DNA of 32,615 bases. Origin: an uncultured Erysipelotrichaceae bacterium (GTDB lineage Bacteria; Bacillota_I; Bacilli_A; RF39; UBA660). The position numbers were made by a program, and so were the translations under genes. The DNA is taken from contig CACZQJ010000001.1 in NCBI GenBank assembly GCA_902783265.1, forward strand, positions 1 through 32,615, written 5' to 3'. A model generated the notes under the pieces. The model worked only from the letters and a program-made list of their open reading frames with translations, was not told the DNA's origin and did no database searches. Shown here in pieces: positions 2,359 through 21,419 of this stretch; within the stretch, counting starts at the first letter, position 1, and each line of letters begins with the position of its first letter.

Positions 2359-2389
2359 AAAAAATAGACTTAATAAAAGTCTATTTTTT
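2359..2389. terminator. Bidirectional terminator between convergent genes
   Basis: A perfect 13-bp stem (AAAAAATAGACTT pairing with AAGTCTATTTTTT) closes a 5-base AATAA loop. The A-run on one side and T-run on the other let it end transcription of the plus-strand gene at 1062-2354 and of yqeY coming the other way. The yqeY stop codon lies inside the right arm. Confidence 0.85.
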
Positions 2390-2825
2390 AATTCAATTTT
2401 TCTTTTATAATACTACTGACCTTGCCCATATCAGCTCTCCCCTTTACTAAAGGAGTGACAACCTTCATAATTTTGCCCATATCTTTAGTTGATACTGGTT
2501 TTACTTCACTAAAGGCATTTTCAATAATTTCTAAAACCTCTTCGTCTGATAACTGTTTAGGCAAATAAGTAGTCAAAATATCTATTTCTTTGGCAGTTGC
2601 TTCTATCAAATCATCTCTGCCGCCTTTTTCAAATTCGCTAATAGAATCTTTTCTAGTTTTTATTTGCTTAGAAATAACATCTATAACCTCTTCATCTGTA
2701 AGCTCTCTTTTTTTATTAAGTTCTTCCATTTGCATAGCTGATTTTACCATTCTAATAACAGCAAGCTTCGTTTTATCTTGAGCTTTCATAGCCAATTTTA
2801 AATCTTCCAAAATTTGATTACGCAT
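2388..2825 (-). CDS. yqeY: GatB/YqeY domain protein
   Basis: A 145-residue protein of the YqeY family, matching the usual length of about 148. Family hallmarks are an N-terminal LKxAMKAQDKxKLAVIRM helix, the central KQIKTRKDSISEFEKGGRDDL segment, EIxxLxxYLPKQLSDEE, and a C-terminal PLVKGRADMGKVSSIIKEKL helix. The C-terminal part is related to the tRNA-binding tail domain of GatB amidotransferase; the biochemical role of free YqeY is not established. It lies 40 bases downstream of rpsU, the same order as rpsU-yqeY in Bacillus, so the two are probably co-transcribed. A GGGTGG-type ribosome binding site precedes the ATG. Confidence 0.93.
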   Translation of the reverse strand: MRNQILEDLKLAMKAQDKTKLAVIRMVKSAMQMEELNKKRELTDEEVIDVISKQIKTRKDSISEFEKGGRDDLIEATAKEIDILTTYLPKQLSDEEVLEIIENAFSEVKPVSTKDMGKIMKVVTPLVKGRADMGKVSSIIKEKLN

Positions 2826-2865: not shown

Positions 2866-3066
2866 TTAATAATTATTTCTATTTTCTCTTCTATTTCTTT
2901 TTCTAGTATTTCTAATACCTTGTTCTTTTTTTAGTCTTCTTTTAACGCCAGGTTTTAAATAACCTTCCATGTTTTCTCTAAGTTTTCTACGGGAGCCGTC
3001 TTTATCGACTTTTAATGTTCTAAGAGCACCATCGACATTACCATTTCTAACTACTACTTTTGTCAT
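2866..3066 (-). CDS. rpsU: 30S ribosomal protein S21
   Basis: The 66-residue basic protein begins TKVVVRNGNVDGALRTLK and continues with REN.EGYLKPGVKRRLKKE and an Arg/Lys/Asn-rich tail. This is the S21 pattern (VRxxExxxxALRxFK, then YxKPxxxRRxK). S21 sits on the 30S platform near the anti-Shine-Dalgarno end of 16S rRNA. The start at 3066 is supported by an AGGGAGG ribosome binding site just upstream. A longer reading from 3177 would cross the promoter and the preceding terminator and is rejected. A promoter of its own lies at 3095-3123, and yqeY follows. Confidence 0.95.
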   Translation of the reverse strand: MTKVVVRNGNVDGALRTLKVDKDGSRRKLRENMEGYLKPGVKRRLKKEQGIRNTRKRNRRENRNNY

Positions 3067-3141: not shown

Positions 3142-3165
3142 AAAAAAAGTGAGAAAAATCTCACT
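3142..3165 (-). terminator. Rho-independent terminator of the bacteriocin operon
   Basis: On the minus strand AGTGAG-ATTTTT-CTCACT (arms 3160-3165 and 3148-3153) is followed at once by a run of six T. The TGA stop codon of the second bacteriocin peptide gene ends at the first base of the hairpin, so the terminator closes exactly this operon. Confidence 0.85.
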
Positions 3166-3326
3166 CATATTTTGCACGAACTATTAGTAGTAACTCTTCG
3201 AATAGTCGAGCCTAAAGTTTTACCCAATTCCATTAATAAGGAAATACCTTTAACAATTGCGTTTATAAATGTTGCATTAAGATTTCCACCTCTTAAATTT
3301 AAAAGATCCTTGTCACCCAATATCAT
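3165..3326 (-). CDS. Candidate bacteriocin peptide B, double-glycine leader
   Basis: Hand translation gives a 53-residue precursor. The 14-residue leader is MILGDKDLLNLRGG. Counting back from the Gly-Gly cleavage site it has Asp at -8, Leu at -7 and Leu at -4, the consensus read by C39 peptidases. The 39-residue core begins NLNATFINAIVKGISLLMEL, then has GKTLGSTIRR (a GxxxG motif) and ends NSSCKI. It is cationic (three Lys and two Arg against one Glu) and has one Cys. The start codon overlaps the end of peptide A by 14 bases in another frame. AGGTG lies about 6 bases before the ATG, so translation is probably coupled. The gene ends in the operon terminator. No homologue is recognised by name. 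The leader, the neighbouring C39 exporter and the partner peptide make a bacteriocin or peptide pheromone likely; activity is inferred. Confidence 0.8.
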   Translation of the reverse strand: MILGDKDLLNLRGGNLNATFINAIVKGISLLMELGKTLGSTIRRVTTNSSCKI

Positions 3327-3456
3327 TAATACACCTAATTGGGTTTAAAAAACCATCGACCATACTAATTAAAAACGCAATTGCCGCCCCTATTGAAGCT
3401 GCTAAACTGAATCCTCCACCAGATAAACTAATAAGTTCTTTTTGTTCTAATTTCAT
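3313..3456 (-). CDS. Candidate bacteriocin peptide A, double-glycine leader
   Basis: Hand translation gives a 47-residue precursor. The leader MKLEQKELISLSGG has Glu at -8, Leu at -7, Leu at -4 and Gly-Gly at -2/-1, a near-ideal C39 substrate. The 33-residue core begins GFSLAASIGAAIAFLISMVD and ends NPIRCINDIG. It is very hydrophobic, about neutral to slightly acidic, with one Cys. Small residues recur every four positions (Ala5, Gly9, Ala13, Ser17, Gly21 of the core), a helix-packing pattern like the GxxxG motifs of class IIb two-peptide bacteriocins. AAAGGA stands about 7 bases before the ATG, and the exporter stop codon is 13 bases upstream. The stop is TGA, which is a true stop in this genome because tex and the gene before it also end in TGA. 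Alternatives are a peptide pheromone or toxin. Confidence 0.82.
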   Translation of the reverse strand: MKLEQKELISLSGGGFSLAASIGAAIAFLISMVDGFLNPIRCINDIG

Positions 3457-3469
3457 ATCAAAATCCTTT

Positions 3470-5479
3470 CTAAATATTACGCACTTCATCTAAAACAACC
3501 CTTCCACCTTCTAATTTTAAAAATCTATCAAATAAATCCAAATTATCAAGCCTATGTGAAATAAAAATAATAGTTTTGTCTTCATACTTTTTAAATAGTT
3601 TTTTTAGTATTCGTCTTTCCATATTTACATCAACCTGGCTTAATCCCTCATCAATAATTAAAATTTGAAAATTTGAAAGTGCCCTAGCTAAAGCAATTCT
3701 CTGTCTTTGACCATCAGAAATATTAAAACCTTCTTCTTCCACCACGTCATTATAATCACCTATAAATTCAGGTAGTTCACAAATATTATTATTTTCGATA
3801 TCCATTTTTCTAATATTTAAATTATCAAATATTTTTCCAGTAAACAAAATTTCTTTAGGAGAAATATATAGCACATTTTCAAAATTACTTTTATTACTAT
3901 GAAATTTATCAATTAAAGCCTTGCCACTATAATCATCATAATATCCCTTGATAATTTTAAATAATGTACTCTTGCCAGAACCACTCTTACCGCTAACCAT
4001 CACCTTAGAGCCTAATTTAATACTCAAATTAATATTTTTTAAAATAAAATCTACTTTATTAAAACTATAATTTAAATTATTAACAAAAATATCCCCATTA
4101 ACAGAAACATTATCTTTAACGTAATCATTAATAAAAAGTTCTCCTATATGATTAATAGAGCTTTTAACCCCCTCATATTCAAAATCAAAATTTAAAATAT
4201 TTGCCCAAGAACTATTAAGAATAGTTGAAAGTAAAAATATTGTTATAAAGATCTCCACAGGAAGTCCATTTCTCATATTAAAAACTCCATAAATAATAAT
4301 TAATATTAAAGATAAATTACTAATAATTTCTTTAAATAAAAATTCCATGTTTTTAGTATTTTCTAATTTTTTAGAAAGTTTTAAATAATTAATATATTTA
4401 TTACTAAAATCATTAATTCTTTTTTCCTGCAAATTTAAATTTCTAATTGTCTCATACCCTTTAACACTTTCGGTAATAAAAGAATTAATTAAAGATTTTT
4501 CACGCAAAACTTTTTCCATTAAACAATAATTTTTCTTCTTAAAAGAAATATATAAAACTAAATATAAACTAAAAATAAACATATTAATAACAAATAATCT
4601 AAAATGGATAAAATATAATAAGATAAGCAAAATAATAATTAATGGAATATCAATAAATATTGAAACAGCTACATGGTTAATAACATCTTTAATCAAAAAC
4701 AAATCATTAAAATAACTTATAATTTCACCAGTTGTTTTATTTTTAGCGTGCTTATAAGGAAGCCGAATAATATGTTTAAAAGTATTAATAGAAAGACTTA
4801 TATCGATATTTTGATTTAGTTTTATTAATATTAAATTCCGTATATAGCCAGTAAATGTAAGAATTAAAAATAAAAAGGAAAAAAACAAGATTATTTTAAA
4901 AATAAGAGAACTATTTAAATATGTAATCACTGACTGTATAAAAAACGAAGAAAAAATTGATAAAAGACTTATTATTAAAGAAAAAAAAGATATTAAAAAT
5001 AAGTACTTAATATTTGGCTTTATAAGGTTAAAGATAAAATCAAAAACATTTATTTCCCCCTCCTTAACCAGTTTATGTTTTAAAGTCATAGAGATAATTA
5101 TCCCATCAAAACAAGATAAAAATTCCTTAAATTTTACTTTAACTATTCCTTTAGACGGATCACCTATTATAAGATTTTTCTTCTTAAAATTAATTTTATA
5201 TATTACAACATAATGATTGTAGGAGTGAATATTTATAAGTGCAATACAAGGACATTTTATAGAAGACAAATCATCATACTTGTAACCATCACTATCAAAG
5301 CCAAGTGATTTTAATACCTGAATCATATGATATGCCGTTGTTCCTTTATTATTAGTACAAAGCATATCACAAAGTTTATCCAAGCTTACATAACCACCAT
5401 AATATTTTAATATCATCAAAATACATGCCGGCCCACAATCCTTAAGACCTCTTTGTCTAACCATCGGATACTTTTTCAT
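3470..5479 (-). CDS. C39-peptidase ABC transporter, bacteriocin exporter
   Basis: A 669-residue peptidase-containing ABC transporter that cuts double-glycine leaders and exports the mature peptide. Residues 1-130 are a C39 cysteine protease with QRGLKDCGPAC (catalytic Cys15), NHYVVIY (His89) and GDPSKG (Asp107), so the triad is intact. Residues about 155-430 are the transmembrane domain. Residues about 460-669 are the ATPase: Walker A GKSGSGKST (497-505), signature SDGQR (588-592), Walker B ILIIDE (606-611) and H-loop His642. The start is set by a perfect AGGAGGTG. The two leader-bearing peptide genes follow 13 bases downstream and are its likely substrates. No HlyD-like accessory protein or lanthipeptide synthetase lies nearby. 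A -10-like TATATT (5501-5506) without a good -35 suggests an activated promoter. Confidence 0.95.
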   Translation of the reverse strand: MKKYPMVRQRGLKDCGPACILMILKYYGGYVSLDKLCDMLCTNNKGTTAYHMIQVLKSLGFDSDGYKYDDLSSIKCPCIALINIHSYNHYVVIYKINFKKKNLIIGDPSKGIVKVKFKEFLSCFDGIIISMTLKHKLVKEGEINVFDFIFNLIKPNIKYLFLISFFSLIISLLSIFSSFFIQSVITYLNSSLIFKIILFFSFLFLILTFTGYIRNLILIKLNQNIDISLSINTFKHIIRLPYKHAKNKTTGEIISYFNDLFLIKDVINHVAVSIFIDIPLIIILLILLYFIHFRLFVINMFIFSLYLVLYISFKKKNYCLMEKVLREKSLINSFITESVKGYETIRNLNLQEKRINDFSNKYINYLKLSKKLENTKNMEFLFKEIISNLSLILIIIYGVFNMRNGLPVEIFITIFLLSTILNSSWANILNFDFEYEGVKSSINHIGELFINDYVKDNVSVNGDIFVNNLNYSFNKVDFILKNINLSIKLGSKVMVSGKSGSGKSTLFKIIKGYYDDYSGKALIDKFHSNKSNFENVLYISPKEILFTGKIFDNLNIRKMDIENNNICELPEFIGDYNDVVEEEGFNISDGQRQRIALARALSNFQILIIDEGLSQVDVNMERRILKKLFKKYEDKTIIFISHRLDNLDLFDRFLKLEGGRVVLDEVRNI

Positions 5480-5641: not shown

Positions 5642-5854
5642 TTAAGCTGCTGGTATCATATTCATTCCAGTACTTTTTCCTTTTGTTATTTCATAAGTAC
5701 TTATTTTAGTATTATCAAATCCGACACACCAGTTTGTTGAAATACCAGCTGTACCATTTATTTGTAAATTGGTACTAAATGCCGCAAAGCCTACTGCCAT
5801 AAATAATACTAATAAAAGAAGACCTACTATTATATAATTTCTTTTATCTCTCAT
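5642..5854 (-). pseudogene. Truncated SipW-cargo (TasA/CalY-like) protein
   Basis: A 70-residue reading frame. Its first 47 residues match the N-termini of the full-length cargo proteins in this window: a basic start, a hydrophobic signal segment ending VGFAAFSTNL, then INGTAGISTNW. After that the protein stops within 25 residues, whereas the paralogues are 164-194 residues long with a beta-sandwich domain. The 76 bases between its stop and its terminator hold stop codons in the same frame and no recognisable remnant of the missing domain. The ribosome binding site is also weak. The simplest reading is a 3'-deleted, decaying copy. A short secreted peptide with a SipW signal remains possible. 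It sits directly upstream of the bacteriocin operon but has a separate terminator. Confidence 0.6.
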
Positions 5855-5949: not shown

Positions 5950-6483
5950 TTACAATTTAAAGTTATTTCTATATATAGAAACCATCTTAGGACCATAATT
6001 TTTTTCTTTAATCAACTCTAAATTTGTTTCAATTTTTATATTTTCATATTCACAAATAACAATTCCATCATCATTAAGTAATTTTCTCTCTTCAATTACT
6101 CTTAAAGCCTTATTCATAAGTCCAGCTCTATAAGGCGGATCTAAAAATATAATGTCAAACTTTTCATTAGTTTCTTTCAAATATCTTTTATAATCAGCAT
6201 TAATAACATCAATATCGTCATCAAATGACTTAATATTTTCTTTTATAACATCAATAACAAATTTGTTATTATCAACTAAAACTAATCTTTTAGCTCCATT
6301 GCTTATTGCTTCAAGCCCTAGTGAACCACTTCCAGCAAATAAATCAAGAACAGTTGCTTCTTTAATATAACCTTGAATAATTCCATATATTGATTCCTTA
6401 ACCCTATCCATAGTAGGTCTCGTTCCCGGCATATCATAACCCTTTAATTTTTTACCTCTATATTTCCCACTAATAATTCGCAT
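5950..6483 (-). CDS. rsmD: 16S rRNA (guanine966-N2)-methyltransferase RsmD
   Basis: A 177-residue SAM-dependent methyltransferase that modifies G966 of 16S rRNA. It shows the family start MRIISGKYRGKKL, the RPTMDRVKESIYG segment, the SAM-binding VLDLFAGSGSLGLEAISNGA motif, the acidic VLVDNN loop and the catalytic FLDPPY motif. Length is normal. The ATG at 6483 is chosen because GGTGAT lies 5-6 bases upstream; a TTG at 6495 has no suitable site. It lies just downstream of ylbD-ylbE, as ylbH (rsmD) does in Bacillus. The usual partner coaD is not next to it here. Confidence 0.96.
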   Translation of the reverse strand: MRIISGKYRGKKLKGYDMPGTRPTMDRVKESIYGIIQGYIKEATVLDLFAGSGSLGLEAISNGAKRLVLVDNNKFVIDVIKENIKSFDDDIDVINADYKRYLKETNEKFDIIFLDPPYRAGLMNKALRVIEERKLLNDDGIVICEYENIKIETNLELIKEKNYGPKMVSIYRNNFKL

Positions 6484-6510
6484 TAAAATCACCAATATTA
6501 TTTTATCACA

Positions 6511-7119: not shown

Positions 7120-7149
7120 AAAAAAAGATTATGCATTTTGAACATAATC
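7120..7149 (-). terminator. Terminator overlapping cargo gene 3' end
   Basis: On the minus strand GATTATG and CATAATC arms with a 9-base loop are followed by seven T. The stem includes the stop codon and last codons of the cargo gene at 7129-7623. Confidence 0.7.
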
Positions 7150-7623
7150 AAGTTTAACCGTAAGTGAAGCATTTAACGTCGCAGGTTGGCTAGTAACATC
7201 TTTATCGTAAGAAACCTTAACTGTAAAAGTATGAGTATCAGAAGCTTCCAAAATATCACCTTCATTAATACCACTAGTTTCAAAAATAATTGCTGGATTA
7301 TTAGAATCAGTTAAAGTAATTTTATCAACTTTTGCATCTAAAGTACCACTATTTTTAACTGTTACATCATAGGTCATACTATCACCAGGAGAAACTAAAG
7401 TTGTTTTAAATGTAGCAGAAGTCTTAGTATAAATAGGCGCTGAAGTGTCAGAAGCACTTCCAACCTTGTCTTTACTAACTATATTTATAATTTCAACATC
7501 CCACTTACTATCAATACGAGCAGTTCCATTAATTGTTAAATTAGTACTAAAAGCTGCGAATCCTACCACAAGTAAACATATAATTACAACTAAAATACCG
7601 ATTATTATATATTTCCTTTTCAT
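7129..7623 (-). CDS. SipW-dependent secreted cargo protein, TasA/CalY-like
   Basis: A 164-residue protein. A basic start and hydrophobic signal segment (about 5-26) run into VGFAAFSTNLTINGTARI, the conserved N-terminal block of all the cargo proteins in this window. The rest is a beta-sandwich-like domain containing LVSPGDSMTYDVTVKNSGTLDAKVDKI, typical of TasA/camelysin-type proteins, and it ends KLDYVQNA like the protein at 16877. No Cys pair is present. The signal-peptide form fits processing by a SipW-type signal peptidase, here the one at 15596-16738. Export followed by assembly into fibres or surface matrix is inferred. It stands alone, with its own promoter (7648-7676) and a terminator in its 3' end. 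Confidence 0.85.
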   Translation of the reverse strand: MKRKYIIIGILVVIICLLVVGFAAFSTNLTINGTARIDSKWDVEIINIVSKDKVGSASDTSAPIYTKTSATFKTTLVSPGDSMTYDVTVKNSGTLDAKVDKITLTDSNNPAIIFETSGINEGDILEASDTHTFTVKVSYDKDVTSQPATLNASLTVKLDYVQNA

Positions 7624-11471: not shown

Positions 11472-13499
11472 TTAATTATTTACCTCTTCTTTATTGCTAC
11501 GCATATCAATAGTTGCTTCATTTATCGCATCATCAATAGTTTTTATTTCATCATTTATCATACTATATCCGATTGCTGCTCCAAATCCATGTGAAAGTTC
11601 TTTAAATTCTTTATTTAACTTACGCATATATGTAACAATTGTTTTTTCATCATGACCAACTGTAAATACTAAAAATTCATTTCCATCAGTTCTGACAAGC
11701 TCACTATCACTAAGCTGATTATTAATTAATATACTAGCACCTTCAATAATAACCTTATCCCCTTCAGCATGGCCAAAATTATCATTAATATATGCTACAT
11801 TATTTAAATCTATAATTATAACCGCTTGTGGGTATACTTCGCTATTGTCCCACTTACTAATATTATCATTTAAGTAATCTCTATTTTTAAGAGATGTCAT
11901 TGAATCAATATAGCGTAGTTTGTCAGCTTTAGACAATTTGAAATCATATGTCTTACGGCGTTTAAAAATTTTAGCAGCTAAAAATATCGTAAACGAAATT
12001 AAAAGAATAACAAGTGCACTTAAAATAGTTTGTAATAAAACAATACTATTATTAGAATTTAAAATACCTATATAACTATCATTTATAACATCATTAGTAT
12101 CTATAAAAGATAAATAGAAATTTAAAAATTCATTAAACACTTTATTACCACTAATATCTCGTGTCAAAAATCCATAATCACGCTCAAAATCCAAAACACC
12201 CAATTTTTTAACATCACTAAATTTAGATCTTACATAATAATCATAAGTATATTCATCAATTGCCGCTATTTTCAAGCCCTTTAAATCATTTAGTAAAGAC
12301 CTAGAATCATCATAAGAATTAACTTTAATGTTATTTTTCTTTAAATAATTTTCTATATAACTATTTTTAACAGTAGAAACAGTCTCGCCATTTAATGAAT
12401 AAATATTATTAATAGTCAAATCAGAATTATCTTTAGTAACTATCACTACTTTATTATTATAAACACCTACAGTATTTAATACATCCATATTAAATTTAGT
12501 TGTACCATTATCACTAGAAATAATATCCAAACCATTCTTATTAAAATCATCAAGAACATTATCAATTGATGAATATCTTTTAAATTCCACTTCCACATTA
12601 GCCATATTAGCAAATTTTTTTATAAATGAATAATTAAGTCCTTTTAAAGAACCATTTACATTCACTTCGAAAGGCGCATTCAAAACAAAACCATATTTAT
12701 ATCTTTTACTTCTAAAACTAGCCTGTTCTTTTTCATCAATATTATTAAAAGTAAAATAACTATCCATTAAATATTTATTCAAAGATTTTTGATATTTTTT
12801 GTTTTTATAATTTTTAAAATATTTAACTAAAATTTTATTTAATTTTTTATTATTTCCTAAAGTAATTACATAATTTTTATTATACTCAGTAATATTATAA
12901 GCAATATTTAAATCATTATTTAAAATTATTTCCAAATAATCTAATTTAGGTAAAACAACACCATCAATGTTTTCGTTTTTAACATCAGTAATCATTTCAT
13001 CTTCGGTTCCATAACCTTTATAAGAAAGATTACTACTGCCATTTAAATAATTACCAACCTTAGTTAAATCATTATTTAAAACCCCAATACGCAAATTTTT
13101 AAGATCCGTAACACTAGTATAGTGTAAATTCTTTTTAGTTACTATAACATAATTATCTTGATATAATAAAATGTCATCCTTAGTATCCTCTTTAATAGCT
13201 AAAGCATATTCAGAGTTTGTTTTAGAAGATTTATTATAAGGTAACTTATTAATTTGTAAACCCGTATCCCTTTCTAAAGAATCAAAAAAATCAAATACAA
13301 TTCCATTACCACTATAGCTAACTATTGGAACATCACTTAAAACAGCAACATCTATTACTTTATCTTTATTATTTTCAATCCATCTTTTTTCAATAACAGT
13401 AAGAGATGTTTTTTTATCTTCATTTGTAAAAAAATATACACCAAAAGCTATAATAATAACAGCTAAAACTGCAATAACAACTTTCCATTTTTTATCCAT
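11472..13499 (-). CDS. Two-SBP-domain membrane sensor with degenerate GGDEF domain
   Basis: A 675-residue protein: TM helix (about 6-24), two tandem external substrate-binding-like domains of the bacterial family 3 type (about 45-250 and 260-480), a second TM helix (about 485-515), and a C-terminal GGDEF-type domain (about 530-665). The domain has the IIDLNNVAYINDNFGHAEGDKVI segment typical of diguanylate cyclases. Its signature reads RTDGNEF (DGNEF at 605-609) instead of RxGGDEF: the first Gly is Asp and the third residue is Asn. Diguanylate cyclase activity is therefore uncertain; nucleotide binding is possible. The ATG at 13499 is chosen because AGGTGG lies 6 bases upstream. It overlaps the preceding gene by 8 bases. 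A ligand such as an amino acid is inferred from the SBP family only. Confidence 0.85.
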   Translation of the reverse strand: MDKKWKVVIAVLAVIIIAFGVYFFTNEDKKTSLTVIEKRWIENNKDKVIDVAVLSDVPIVSYSGNGIVFDFFDSLERDTGLQINKLPYNKSSKTNSEYALAIKEDTKDDILLYQDNYVIVTKKNLHYTSVTDLKNLRIGVLNNDLTKVGNYLNGSSNLSYKGYGTEDEMITDVKNENIDGVVLPKLDYLEIILNNDLNIAYNITEYNKNYVITLGNNKKLNKILVKYFKNYKNKKYQKSLNKYLMDSYFTFNNIDEKEQASFRSKRYKYGFVLNAPFEVNVNGSLKGLNYSFIKKFANMANVEVEFKRYSSIDNVLDDFNKNGLDIISSDNGTTKFNMDVLNTVGVYNNKVVIVTKDNSDLTINNIYSLNGETVSTVKNSYIENYLKKNNIKVNSYDDSRSLLNDLKGLKIAAIDEYTYDYYVRSKFSDVKKLGVLDFERDYGFLTRDISGNKVFNEFLNFYLSFIDTNDVINDSYIGILNSNNSIVLLQTILSALVILLISFTIFLAAKIFKRRKTYDFKLSKADKLRYIDSMTSLKNRDYLNDNISKWDNSEVYPQAVIIIDLNNVAYINDNFGHAEGDKVIIEGASILINNQLSDSELVRTDGNEFLVFTVGHDEKTIVTYMRKLNKEFKELSHGFGAAIGYSMINDEIKTIDDAINEATIDMRSNKEEVNN

Positions 13500-13959
13500 T
13501 ATTGCCACCTGCAATTCCATAATTTACACTATCACTGCTTTTACTCTTATAACCAATTATTGGATATTGCTCACTTTTTTCATCAGAATCAATAAATATT
13601 TGAATATCATAATATTTTTGATCATCTTTACTTATTTCATTTATAATACTACCTGCAAATTCCTTGGCCTGATTAACGCCAAAATTACTATCTACAGTTA
13701 TTGTAAAATTCAAAATTCTTCCTTCTTTGTTATATTCTATTTTAGACACACTGTCATTGTCTTTTGCTTTATCTTTTATTTTAGATATAACCTTATCAGA
13801 AATTTTATGTTTTTTTTCATCCTTTAACCTATCACCATATTTATTACCATTAAAACTAGGTAATATAAATAACCATGTCATAAGTATTATTAAAATAATA
13901 ACTAAACAAATAACTCCCATAATCATTTGTTTTTTATGTTTTTTAATAAATTTTTTCAT
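13492..13959 (-). CDS. Small single-TM membrane protein of unknown function
   Basis: A 155-residue protein not recognised. It has a basic N-terminus (MKKFIKKHKKQ), one strong membrane helix (about 13-34), a Lys/Asp-rich segment, and a small external domain with alternating strands (KIEYNKEGRILNFTITVDSN; YYDIQIFIDSDE), ending in a Gly/Asn-rich tail. The ATG at 13959 has GGTGAT 5 bases upstream and is preferred over an upstream TTG. The 3' end overlaps the start of the sensor gene, so the two are coupled; it may assist that sensor. A possible internal promoter has TATAAT at 13976-13981 with a weak TTGTTT -35. Confidence 0.75.
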   Translation of the reverse strand: MKKFIKKHKKQMIMGVICLVIILIILMTWLFILPSFNGNKYGDRLKDEKKHKISDKVISKIKDKAKDNDSVSKIEYNKEGRILNFTITVDSNFGVNQAKEFAGSIINEISKDDQKYYDIQIFIDSDEKSEQYPIIGYKSKSSDSVNYGIAGGNNG

Positions 13960-16863: not shown

Positions 16864-16887
16864 AAAAAGCTTAATTTTAAGCTTTTT
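16864..16887 (-). terminator. Terminator overlapping cargo gene 3' end
   Basis: AAAAAGCTT-N6-AAGCTTTTT, a 9-bp stem with the A/T run built in. It covers the stop codon (16877-16879) and the last codons of the cargo gene. Confidence 0.8.
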
Positions 16888-17443
16888 GAACATAGTTTAA
16901 AGTCATTAATACTGTTTTTTCAAGTTGGGCTGCTGACGGTTGAGTAGTAACAGCAGGATTATAAGTAGCAGTTACTGTAAACGTATCAGTTCCACCATTA
17001 GCATTTAAATCATCACCAACAGCAATTCCTGAATAAGTGTATAATATTGCATCAGTTGGATTAGTTTGCCCCATAGTTGCATCACTGAACGTAATACCAC
17101 CAGGTCCTAACTCAGCATTAATAGTACCACTATTTTCAACAGTAACAGTATAAGTTACAGACTCAGAAGGTGAAAGTAAAATTGCACTAAATTCAGCCGT
17201 ATAATTATCTTTAACCTCATGTTTTATACTTCCAGCAGTAGTATAAGTAGTCTCTCCATTGCTATAAGTGCCCACTGCGGTCGCAGATGGAGTAATTGAT
17301 TTAATATGAACATTCCATGAACTATTAATATTAGCCGTACCATTAATATTTAAATTAGTAGCAAACGCTGCATAACCTACTGCCATAACTAAAACTATTG
17401 CAAGAAGTACTCCTATTAAAATATTTTTATGCCTTGATTCCAT
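16877..17443 (-). CDS. SipW-dependent secreted cargo protein, TasA/CalY-like
   Basis: A 188-residue secreted protein. The signal segment (about 8-27) leads to VGYAAFATNLNINGTANI, then NSSWNVHI, and the body contains LLSPSESVTYTVTVENSGTI, a TasA/camelysin-like strand pattern. It ends MTLNYVQKA, like the protein at 7129, and has no Cys pair; these two form one subgroup. A strong AGGAGGT ribosome binding site precedes the ATG. It is the cargo gene closest to the signal peptidase, only 139 bases upstream of that gene, but has its own promoter and terminator. Fibre or matrix function is inferred from the family. Confidence 0.88.
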   Translation of the reverse strand: MESRHKNILIGVLLAIVLVMAVGYAAFATNLNINGTANINSSWNVHIKSITPSATAVGTYSNGETTYTTAGSIKHEVKDNYTAEFSAILLSPSESVTYTVTVENSGTINAELGPGGITFSDATMGQTNPTDAILYTYSGIAVGDDLNANGGTDTFTVTATYNPAVTTQPSAAQLEKTVLMTLNYVQKA

Positions 17444-17567: not shown

Positions 17568-18140
17568 TTATTGAGCTTGACTAGCTACGATAGTAACAGT
17601 AATTCCAGCACTTTCTTCACCAGCTAAACTTGTAACGTTTTCATTTTTGAATTCAGCAGTTACTTTAATAGTAGTATTACCAGTATTAGCAACTAAAGAA
17701 TTACTTGCAGGATTTTCAACAGTAAATTGAATATGTCCAGCTTGACTAGTACAAACATTACCAGTACATGTTGTAGTACCTGTTCCTGAAACACTAGGAG
17801 CTGCTAAAGTTGCAGGTAAACTACCTTCATTTAGAATAGTTAAAAGAAATTCAACTTTATCGCCAGGTTGGTTTAATGTAGCATTAACATTTGCAGTTAA
17901 ATTACCATCATAACCAACAGTTCCTACTGGGGCGTCAGTTCCACCAGTTCCAGTTGTTGGAGTAACAACACCAGGTGCTGTTGTAGTTTTAGAAGTATCA
18001 AAATGTACATTCCAACTTGAATTAATTGTTGCAGTACCATTAATTGTTAAAGTAGTAGCAAATGCTGCATAACCTACTGCCATAACAAATACTACTGCTA
18101 GTAGTGCTCCTATTAACGCATTCTTGTGTTTAGATTCCAT
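17568..18140 (-). CDS. SipW-dependent secreted cargo protein with Cys pair
   Basis: A 190-residue secreted protein. The signal segment (about 8-26) leads to VGYAAFATTLTINGTATI, then NSSWNVHFDTSKT. A Gly/Thr-rich stretch (TPTTGTGGTDAPVGTVGY) follows, then the strand LNQPGDKVEFLLTILNEGSL. A Cys pair, CTGNVCTSQAGHIQFTV, is shared in position with the proteins at 20235 and 20847 and may form a small disulfide loop. The ribosome binding site is a very strong AAGGAGGAAGGA, suggesting high expression. The promoter is weaker (18194-18222). It belongs to the same subgroup as the two cargo genes beyond argS, probably by duplication. Confidence 0.88.
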   Translation of the reverse strand: MESKHKNALIGALLAVVFVMAVGYAAFATTLTINGTATINSSWNVHFDTSKTTTAPGVVTPTTGTGGTDAPVGTVGYDGNLTANVNATLNQPGDKVEFLLTILNEGSLPATLAAPSVSGTGTTTCTGNVCTSQAGHIQFTVENPASNSLVANTGNTTIKVTAEFKNENVTSLAGEESAGITVTIVASQAQ

Positions 18141-20234: not shown

Positions 20235-20819
20235 CTAAGCTTGTGTTGCCGAAAAAGTTACTGCAACCTTTAATTGCTCACCAGAAGCCAAATTTGAAAC
20301 TGTCGTATTTTTAAACTTAGCAGTTACATTAATAGTTGCTGTACCGCCATTTGCTGTTAAACTGGTTTTTGAAAAACTGCCAATTGTGAATTCAACATGT
20401 CCAGCTGTACTTGTACAAACCGTGCTAGTACCACTACCAGAACATGAACCACCACTTGTTGCCGTCATTGTAGGTGTACCCAAAGTTGCTGCTAAACTAC
20501 CAGAATTTTTAACAGTTAAGGTATAAACAACCGTATCTCCAGGTTGATATAAAGTAGCACCTAAAGTTGCTGTAGTATCACCATTAGAATATGCAATAGT
20601 TCCTCCTGAAGGAGCCGTTCCACCAGTTTTACCAATTGTAGTTGCTATAACTCCCGTCCCTGAAGTTTTAGTTGAATCAAATTTAACATCCCAGCTTGAA
20701 CTAATTGTTGCCGTACCATTAATTGTAAGTGCTGTGCTAAAAGCCGCATAAGCTACAGCCATAACTACTAGTACTGCAAGTAGCATTGCTATCATTATAT
20801 TTTTACGATTGTTTGTCAT
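20235..20819 (-). CDS. SipW-dependent secreted cargo protein with Cys pair
   Basis: A 194-residue secreted protein and second gene of a tandem pair (27 bases after the first). The signal segment (about 8-26) leads to VAYAAFSTALTINGTATI, then SSSWDVKFDSTKTSGTGV, a Gly/Thr/Ser-rich region, LYQPGDTVVYTLTVKNSGSL, and a Cys pair in CSGSGTSTVCTSTAGHVEFTI (spacing longer than in its paralogues). It ends VTFSATQA. Its ribosome binding site (AAGGATAAGAG) is weaker than that of the first gene. Secretion by the SipW-type peptidase and an extracellular structural role are inferred from the family. Confidence 0.87.
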   Translation of the reverse strand: MTNNRKNIMIAMLLAVLVVMAVAYAAFSTALTINGTATISSSWDVKFDSTKTSGTGVIATTIGKTGGTAPSGGTIAYSNGDTTATLGATLYQPGDTVVYTLTVKNSGSLAATLGTPTMTATSGGSCSGSGTSTVCTSTAGHVEFTIGSFSKTSLTANGGTATINVTAKFKNTTVSNLASGEQLKVAVTFSATQA

Positions 20820-20846: not shown

Positions 20847-21419
20847 TTAACTAGCTGCTTGAGTAGCAGTAATAGAAACAACAATGCTTGCTTCTTCGCC
20901 ACTAGATAAACTAGTAACAGCAGTATCAACAAATTCAGCAGTTACTTGCATAGTGGTACTTCCATTAGTAGCATTTAAAGTTGAGCTTAATGGACTACCA
21001 ACAGTAAATTTAATATGCCCAGCTGAACTAGTACAAATAAGACCTGAACAATTAGTTGCCTCTCCTGCAGTTGCTGAAGGTGCCCCTAAAGTGGCTTTTA
21101 AACTACCTTCGTTTTTAATAGTTAAAGTAAATACAACTTTATCACCTGGTTGTCTAAGCGTTGCTCTAACACCTGCATGTTGACCATCAGTATATGAAAC
21201 TGTTCCTGATGGCGCAGTTGAACCTCCTGCACCAGTAGTTGGATTAATAACACCGGTTCCTGAAGTCTTTGTTGTATCAAAATGAACATTCCAGCTTGAA
21301 TTAATTGTTGCTGTACCATTAATTGTAAGTGCAGTACTAAATGCTGCATAAGCTACAGCCATAACTACTAAAGCTCCCAATAACATTGCGATCATCGCAT
21401 TTTTGTGATTGTTTCCCAT
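20847..21419 (-). CDS. SipW-dependent secreted cargo protein with Cys pair
   Basis: A 190-residue secreted protein, first of the tandem pair. The signal segment (about 8-26) leads to VAYAAFSTALTINGTATI, then NSSWNVHFDTTKTSGTGVIN. This is followed by PTTGAGGSTAPSGTVSYTDG, LRQPGDKVVFTLTIKNEGSL and the Cys pair CSGLICTSSAGHIKFTV. It is very like the protein at 17568 through most of its length, so the three Cys-pair genes arose by duplication on both sides of argS. It has a strong GAGGAGG ribosome binding site and a promoter at 21448-21476. Confidence 0.88.
   Translation of the reverse strand: MGNNHKNAMIAMLLGALVVMAVAYAAFSTALTINGTATINSSWNVHFDTTKTSGTGVINPTTGAGGSTAPSGTVSYTDGQHAGVRATLRQPGDKVVFTLTIKNEGSLKATLGAPSATAGEATNCSGLICTSSAGHIKFTVGSPLSSTLNATNGSTTMQVTAEFVDTAVTSLSSGEEASIVVSITATQAAS

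What the first reader, a model, noticed from the sequence alone, without database searches (positions are those of the whole stretch)
3165..5479. A hidden two-peptide bacteriocin operon with a dedicated C39 exporter
Seen: a PCAT-type ABC transporter with intact C39 triad (Cys15, His89, Asp107) is followed, in a stretch that looks empty if only longer frames are counted, by two tiny genes. Peptide A (47 aa) has leader MKLEQKELISLSGG and peptide B (53 aa) has leader MILGDKDLLNLRGG. Both have an acidic residue at -8, Leu at -7 and -4, and Gly-Gly. Each has a ribosome binding site, and a terminator closes the operon. Known: C39 exporters cut exactly such leaders, and class IIb bacteriocins are encoded as adjacent pairs with GxxxG-like motifs. 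Inferred: the mature peptides (33 and 39 aa; one hydrophobic and near neutral, one strongly cationic) act together as an antimicrobial pair. I do not recognise either core from a known bacteriocin.
Basis: partly seen in the sequence, partly recalled or inferred. Interest (0 to 1): 0.88.

Follow-up and report, generated by a model that had tools for sequence, protein, structure and literature searches.

The report
Lineage-wide paired secreted peptides with exporter
Two tiny secreted peptides and the membrane pump that trims and exports them, which look like a two-part antibacterial weapon, turn out to be kept by more than 90% of the genomes in a whole family of uncultured, genome-reduced bacteria (probably the gut lineage RF39), which is unusual because such weapons normally come and go between strains.

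Summary
A C39-peptidase ABC exporter (3470-5479, minus) is followed by two overlapping small genes, A (3313-3456) and B (3165-3326), with textbook double-glycine leaders, then a terminator. They are the only two such frames in the window (shuffles: 0.03 per window). They are real genes: homologues sit in the same order beside the exporter across about 100 genera, and both are under purifying selection (dN/dS about 0.2).

The surprise is distribution. The B profile hits 356 of 386 genomes of the GTDB family (241 of 251 good ones) and no sampled genome outside it. Exporter and B are usually kept or missing together. The fuller operon in relatives is exporter, mini membrane-fusion-like protein, A, B, C; C is a membrane-anchored protein whose tail is homologous to B (candidate immunity by mimicry). 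The window's genus lacks the middle protein and C.

Both cores carry a GxxxG-type motif and one near-invariant C-terminal cysteine. Some relatives pass NCBI's class IIb model, mainly through the leader; the cores match nothing known. Most likely: a class IIb-like two-peptide bacteriocin, fixed and vertically inherited in an RF39-like lineage. Killing activity is untested; a disulfide between the peptides is possible, but no DsbA-like oxidase was found.

The parts
3470..5479 (-). C39 peptidase-containing ABC exporter (PCAT type), 669 aa
   Evidence: Pfam C39/ABC_membrane/ABC_tran; best solved relative PCAT1, E 2.8e-76; catalytic residues invariant in 95/95
5081..5473 (-). C39 peptidase domain (residues 3-133; Cys15, His89, Asp107)
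3464..3469 (-). AAAGGA ribosome binding site of peptide A
   Evidence: sequence
3313..3456 (-). peptide A precursor, 47 aa
   Evidence: dN/dS 0.20
3415..3456 (-). A double-glycine leader MKLEQKELISLSGG
   Evidence: leader positions conserved in 106 homologues
3316..3414 (-). A mature core GFSLAASIGAAIAFLISMVDGFLNPIRCINDIG (33 aa, net -1, one Cys)
   Evidence: Cys in 104/104 homologues
3165..3326 (-). peptide B precursor, 53 aa, overlaps the end of A by 14 nt
   Evidence: dN/dS 0.21
3285..3326 (-). B double-glycine leader MILGDKDLLNLRGG
3168..3284 (-). B mature core NLNATFINAIVKGISLLMELGKTLGSTIRRVTTNSSCKI (39 aa, net +4, GxxxG, one Cys)
3147..3166 (-). intrinsic terminator closing the operon
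5950..6495 (-). rsmD (16S rRNA methyltransferase), conserved upstream neighbour
   Evidence: conserved synteny
2866..3066 (-). rpsU (ribosomal protein S21), conserved downstream neighbour
   Evidence: synteny
2388..2825 (-). yqeY, conserved downstream neighbour
   Evidence: synteny

Best explanation
A three-gene minimal form of a family-wide secretion operon. The exporter recognises the leaders of A and B, its C39 domain cuts after Gly-Gly, and it exports both cores (shown: gene order, catalytic residues, leader motifs, conservation; inferred: cleavage and export). Outside, the hydrophobic helix A and the cationic amphipathic helix B pair through GxxxG faces in a target membrane and permeabilise it, as class IIb two-peptide bacteriocins do (inferred). 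The single cysteine of each core may link the two peptides (speculative). In about half of the relatives the producer carries C, a membrane-anchored protein whose tail is homologous to B and which could occupy B's partner site and so give self-protection (homology shown, function inferred). Unlike ordinary bacteriocins the pair is vertically inherited and nearly fixed in the lineage.
For: Exporter full-length in 352/386 family genomes and B in 356/386 (241/251 of good quality); in sampled genomes that lack one, the other is usually missing too (e.g. G066, G080, G100, G153 lack both). Order exporter-(M)-A-B on one strand in nearly all of about 100 genera. Both peptides keep -12 Leu/Ile, -8 Glu, -7 Leu, -4 Ile/Val and GG. 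dN/dS 0.20 and 0.21, like yqeY 0.21. GxxxG in 102/106 A, 104/106 B and 47/48 C sequences, against 51, 28 and 6 in shuffles. 25 of 27 A members and 15 of 27 B members match TIGR03949 class IIb at E<1, one A member at 32 bits over a 21.5 cut-off. Best solved relative of the exporter is PCAT1, and the leaders weakly resemble its substrate CtA. B is predicted as one long helix. C's tail is homologous to B (hhalign 94%, E 1e-7). The two-peptide gallocin A has an immunity peptide proposed to mimic the bacteriocin (PMC10100652).
Against: No activity data exist. Family-wide fixation and housekeeping-level conservation are atypical of bacteriocins. No immunity gene is recognisable in the window's genus. 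The match to class IIb models runs mainly through the leader; cores alone match nothing meaningful. No DsbA/BdbD-like oxidase in 20 of 20 family genomes, against an enzymatically formed disulfide.
Confidence: 0.6

Rival explanations
1. The pair is a lineage-defining membrane-active factor with a housekeeping role, not a weapon against competitors: for example it permeabilises neighbouring or host cells to obtain lipids and metabolites, or acts on the producer's own envelope.
For: Near-fixation in a genome-reduced family; conservation close to housekeeping proteins (core identity 0.41-0.43 against exporter 0.35, YqeY 0.53); fabF missing in all 18 window-genus genomes; RF39 described as lacking fatty acid synthesis (PMC6784871); about half of loci lack any immunity-like gene.
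Against: The anatomy (paired peptides, GG leaders, GxxxG, B-mimic C) is that of class IIb bacteriocins; some well-assembled genomes have lost the whole set, so it is not essential.
Confidence: 0.2
2. The two peptides are secreted signals (pheromones) exported like ComC or BlpC by ComA-type exporters.
For: ComA-type C39 exporters also process pheromones; a few members match ComC/BlpC models through the leader.
Against: No histidine kinase, response regulator or receptor gene recognised beside the operon in the loci read; two different peptides with long hydrophobic helices and GxxxG motifs; pheromones usually diversify between strains (general knowledge).
Confidence: 0.1
3. The exporter's main substrate is something else and A and B are accessory peptides.
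For: Mycoplasma-like relatives keep a distant exporter plus M pair without adjacent A/B-like genes.
Against: No other GG-leader gene recognised near the operon in the relatives first read; presence and absence of exporter and B coincide in most sampled genomes.
Confidence: 0.06
4. The small frames are chance or an annotation artefact.
For: Short frames in AT-rich DNA.
Against: 0.03 expected per shuffled window against 2 found; profile hits in 356 genomes; dN/dS 0.2.
Confidence: 0.005

Closest known systems
PCAT1 and ComA (C39 peptidase-containing ABC exporters; PDB 4ry2, 8hf4)
   Same: Same domain order and catalytic residues; GG-leader substrate genes linked to the exporter
   Different: Below the curated TIGR01193 cut-off (305.6 against 523.9 bits); a family-wide orthologue set in one lineage
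Class IIb two-peptide bacteriocins (lactococcin G, lactobin A/cerein 7B family; TIGR03949, NF038034)
   Same: Adjacent GG-leader peptide genes, GxxxG helices, one cationic partner, dedicated exporter and, in relatives, a membrane-fusion-like protein
   Different: Unrelated cores, one cysteine per peptide, vertical near-fixation in a whole family, immunity gene often missing
Gallocin A (GllA1/GllA2/GIP)
   Same: Two peptides with cysteines and an immunity peptide proposed to mimic them (PMC10100652)
   Different: Gallocin peptides hold two cysteines each (intramolecular bridge); here one each, and C shares sequence with B only
Mycoplasma NF045998/NF045999 module (Mbov_0121 exporter and MAG1140 family)
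   Same: C39 exporter overlapped by a small one-helix, beta-rich protein like M
   Different: Very distant exporter, different neighbours (ybeY, cdd, era), no A/B-like genes found

Membership tests
PCAT (C39 peptidase ABC exporter) | C39 domain with Cys-His-Asp triad fused to ABC membrane and ATPase domains | tested here: met
PCAT (C39 peptidase ABC exporter) | Cleaves a GG-leader substrate on export | not testable with these tools
   leaders present; cleavage needs biochemistry
TIGR01193 bacteriocin ABC subfamily | Score over the curated cut-off 523.85 | tested here: not met
   305.6 bits
Class IIb two-peptide bacteriocin | Two adjacent genes with GG leaders | tested here: met
Class IIb two-peptide bacteriocin | GxxxG or GxxxG-like motif in each core | tested here: met
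   102/106 A, 104/106 B strict; the window's A has SxxxG, its B GKTLG
Class IIb two-peptide bacteriocin | Both peptides needed together for antimicrobial activity | not testable with these tools
   experiment needed
Class IIb two-peptide bacteriocin | Immunity gene in the operon | tested here: inconclusive
   C follows B in 48/104 loci; none recognised in the window's genus
TIGR03949 lactobin A/cerein 7B family | Score over the curated cut-off 21.5 | tested here: not met
   window peptides: no hit; some relatives of A pass (32.0 and 23.6 bits), with the core alone unmatched
Gallocin-type class IIb | Two cysteines per peptide forming an intramolecular bridge | tested here: not met
   exactly one Cys in 97/104 A and 97/103 B cores
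GG-leader pheromone (ComC/BlpC) | Linked two-component receptor system | tested here: not met
   none recognised beside the operon in the loci read

The most novel reading that the evidence does not exclude
An entire lineage of fatty-acid-auxotrophic, genome-reduced gut bacteria keeps one ancestral two-peptide membrane-permeabilising system as part of its core genome and lives by it, opening neighbouring or host cells for nutrients rather than merely competing with kin, with self-protection by a membrane-tethered mimic of one peptide.
Probability: 0.18. Interest if true: 0.88.

Novelty: new variant of a known kind. Interest (0 to 1): 0.72.

Why it matters
Class II bacteriocins are usually patchy accessory genes. 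A pair that is nearly fixed across about 150 genera of an uncultured, genome-reduced lineage, absent from sampled genomes outside it, and conserved like housekeeping genes suggests a trait that defines how these bacteria live. It gives a directly testable handle (two short synthetic peptides) on organisms that cannot be cultured, a set of several hundred natural variants, and a possible sequence-level case of immunity by mimicry.

Tried and rejected
Weak hits of the window's B to EF-G domain IV were taken as chance. PDB profile hits beyond the CtA leader are noise. The one viral-contig hit to B (L207) is a GC-rich chance match. Foldseek of M against PDB gave only weak beta-barrel matches, among them the membrane-fusion protein BesA (E 0.085, TM 0.42), so 'mini membrane-fusion protein' is a suggestion only. 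A dedicated C gene elsewhere in the window genus was sought; the profile gave B itself and weak hits inside longer frames. Dedicated disulfide machinery was sought with PF13462 and not found; other oxidases were not tested. Literature searches for bacteriocins in RF39 showed no description of this system among the papers listed from the open library. The large class II atlas itself (IIBacFinder) is not in the library, only a comment on it (PMC12648078), so these precursors may already be listed there unnamed.

Full report
Observation. The exporter (3470-5479, minus) has C39, ABC membrane and ATPase domains. Its nearest solved relative by sequence is PCAT1 (E 2.8e-76), and Cys15, His89 and Asp107 align with the corresponding PCAT1 residues. 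The C39 triad, Gln9 and the ATPase residues are invariant in 95 of 95 homologues. Peptides A (3313-3456) and B (3165-3326) follow within 13 nt of the exporter stop, B overlapping A by 14 nt, and a terminator begins at the B stop. A scan of the whole window for small frames with [DE][LIVM]xx[LIVMF]xGG leaders returns only these two, against 0.03 per shuffled window.

They are genes. In 30 relatives first read, GG-leader peptides related to A and B follow the exporter in almost every one. With 100 more loci, nearly one per genus, the order exporter-A-B holds almost without exception. Within the window's genus B is found in 39 of 40 genomes, and dN/dS is 0.20 for A and 0.21 for B, the same as for the neighbour yqeY (0.21).

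Distribution. The exporter is found in 352 of 386 genomes of the family, 146 of 150 genera; the B profile in 356 of 386, or 241 of 251 genomes that are at least 90% complete. Sampling the class gives 43 hits, all in this family, and none in roughly 300 genomes of other families; the phylum sample again gives only this family. Good genomes that lack B generally lack the exporter too (compare), so the set is dispensable but mostly lost as a unit. In four of eight such genomes yqeY could be found, and the stretches around it hold no exporter or peptides. The family is the only one sampled in its order; the window genus has no fabF in 18 of 18 genomes, and titles of related contigs read Bacilli, Mollicutes and Bacillales. 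This fits RF39, an uncultured order with reduced genomes and no fatty acid synthesis (PMC6784871).

Anatomy of the fuller operon. In 60 of 102 loci a frame of over 100 aa (M, about 150 aa) fills a gap of about 420 nt between exporter and A. M is predicted as one membrane helix, a small beta domain and a C-terminal helix, weakly like membrane-fusion proteins, and matches the Mycoplasma MAG1140 family (NF045999, E 2e-4, below its cut-off). In 48 of 104 loci a protein of about 50 aa (C) starts close to or inside the end of B, most often 7, 13 or 16 nt before the end of its stop codon. C has a lysine-rich start, one hydrophobic helix and a tail GxxxGTxxR that is homologous to B (hhalign 94%, E 1e-7), whereas the A and B cores are unrelated to each other (7%). 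M and C tend to occur together (M+C+ 37, M-C- 33, M+C- 23, M-C+ 9). The window's genus lacks M, and C is not found by position there.

The peptides. Leaders keep Leu/Ile at -12, Glu at -8, Leu at -7, Ile/Val at -4 and GG in most of 106 sequences. A is a hydrophobic helix ending in GVIDGYxRPLKC (in the window SMVDGFLNPIRC), B a cationic amphipathic helix with DLGRSLGTAIRR and a C-terminal Cys. GxxxG occurs in 102/106 A, 104/106 B and 47/48 C, far above shuffles. A C-terminal Cys is present in 104/104 A and 102/103 B cores counted. In G045, which has two tandem pairs, the first pair keeps both C-terminal cysteines; in the second, B lacks it and A has only an internal Cys, as B does. This is what a bond between the peptides would predict, but it is one case, and no DsbA/BdbD-like protein was found in 20 of 20 genomes. 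Free thiols or spontaneous oxidation remain possible.

Relation to known kinds. Relatives of A match the class IIb lactobin A/cerein 7B model (32 bits over a 21.5 cut-off in the best one scanned singly), but mainly through the leader; cores alone match nothing meaningful, and the window's own peptides do not match it. So the pair has class IIb architecture with new cores. Gallocin A provides precedents for cysteine-dependent two-peptide activity and for an immunity peptide proposed to mimic the bacteriocin (PMC10100652); immunity proteins of two-peptide bacteriocins are described as membrane-associated, the smallest having 42 aa and one helix (PMC8538875). C fits that description.

Mechanism, with what is shown and what is inferred. 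Shown: a complete, conserved exporter-protease; two cognate leader peptides under purifying selection; near-constant linkage. Inferred: cleavage after GG, export, pairing through GxxxG in a membrane, permeabilisation, protection by C. The strongest point against an ordinary bacteriocin is the fixation and conservation: median core identity 0.41-0.43 between genera, above the exporter (0.35) and not far below YqeY (0.53). A pair of weapons in an arms race would be expected to vary more. The target may therefore be something invariant, or the purpose nutritional.

Limits. Genomes are mostly draft, families are unnamed here, dN/dS values come from pairs near saturation (median dS about 1.1), the atlas of class II bacteriocins could not be searched for these cores, and nothing here tests activity.

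Noticed in passing
L198 with L089 (genome G126); L034 with L199 (genome G292): In two genera gene A is interrupted at the same codons (VIDG|Y) by an insertion; the 3' remainder of A lies just upstream of B, with a serine-recombinase-like gene beside it in G292, and A and B about 35 kb apart in G126. Gene A seems to serve as an attachment site for integrative elements.
   Followed up: partly
L193-L197 (Mycoplasma-like genomes, genetic code 4): A distant C39 exporter overlapped by an M-like MAG1140 protein is conserved in front of ybeY, cdd and era; its substrate is unknown and no GG-leader peptide was seen nearby.
   Followed up: partly
L166 (genome G045) 3762-4335: Tandem duplication of the A-B pair; in the second pair the C-terminal cysteines are gone and each peptide has an internal one.
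   Followed up: partly
L070 (genome G016) between A and B: A SAM-methyltransferase-like gene sits between A and B; it may be an acquired modifying enzyme or a chance insertion.
   Followed up: no
window 5642-5854, 7129-7623, 16877-17443, 17568-18140, 20235-20819, 20847-21419 (-): Six small proteins share a TasA-like start (MAVGxAAFSTxLxINGTA and similar); the 70-aa copy directly upstream of the exporter looks truncated.
   Followed up: no
window 11472-13520 (-): A solute-binding-like protein fused to a GGDEF-like domain, by eye, in a genome of about 1 Mb.
   Followed up: no
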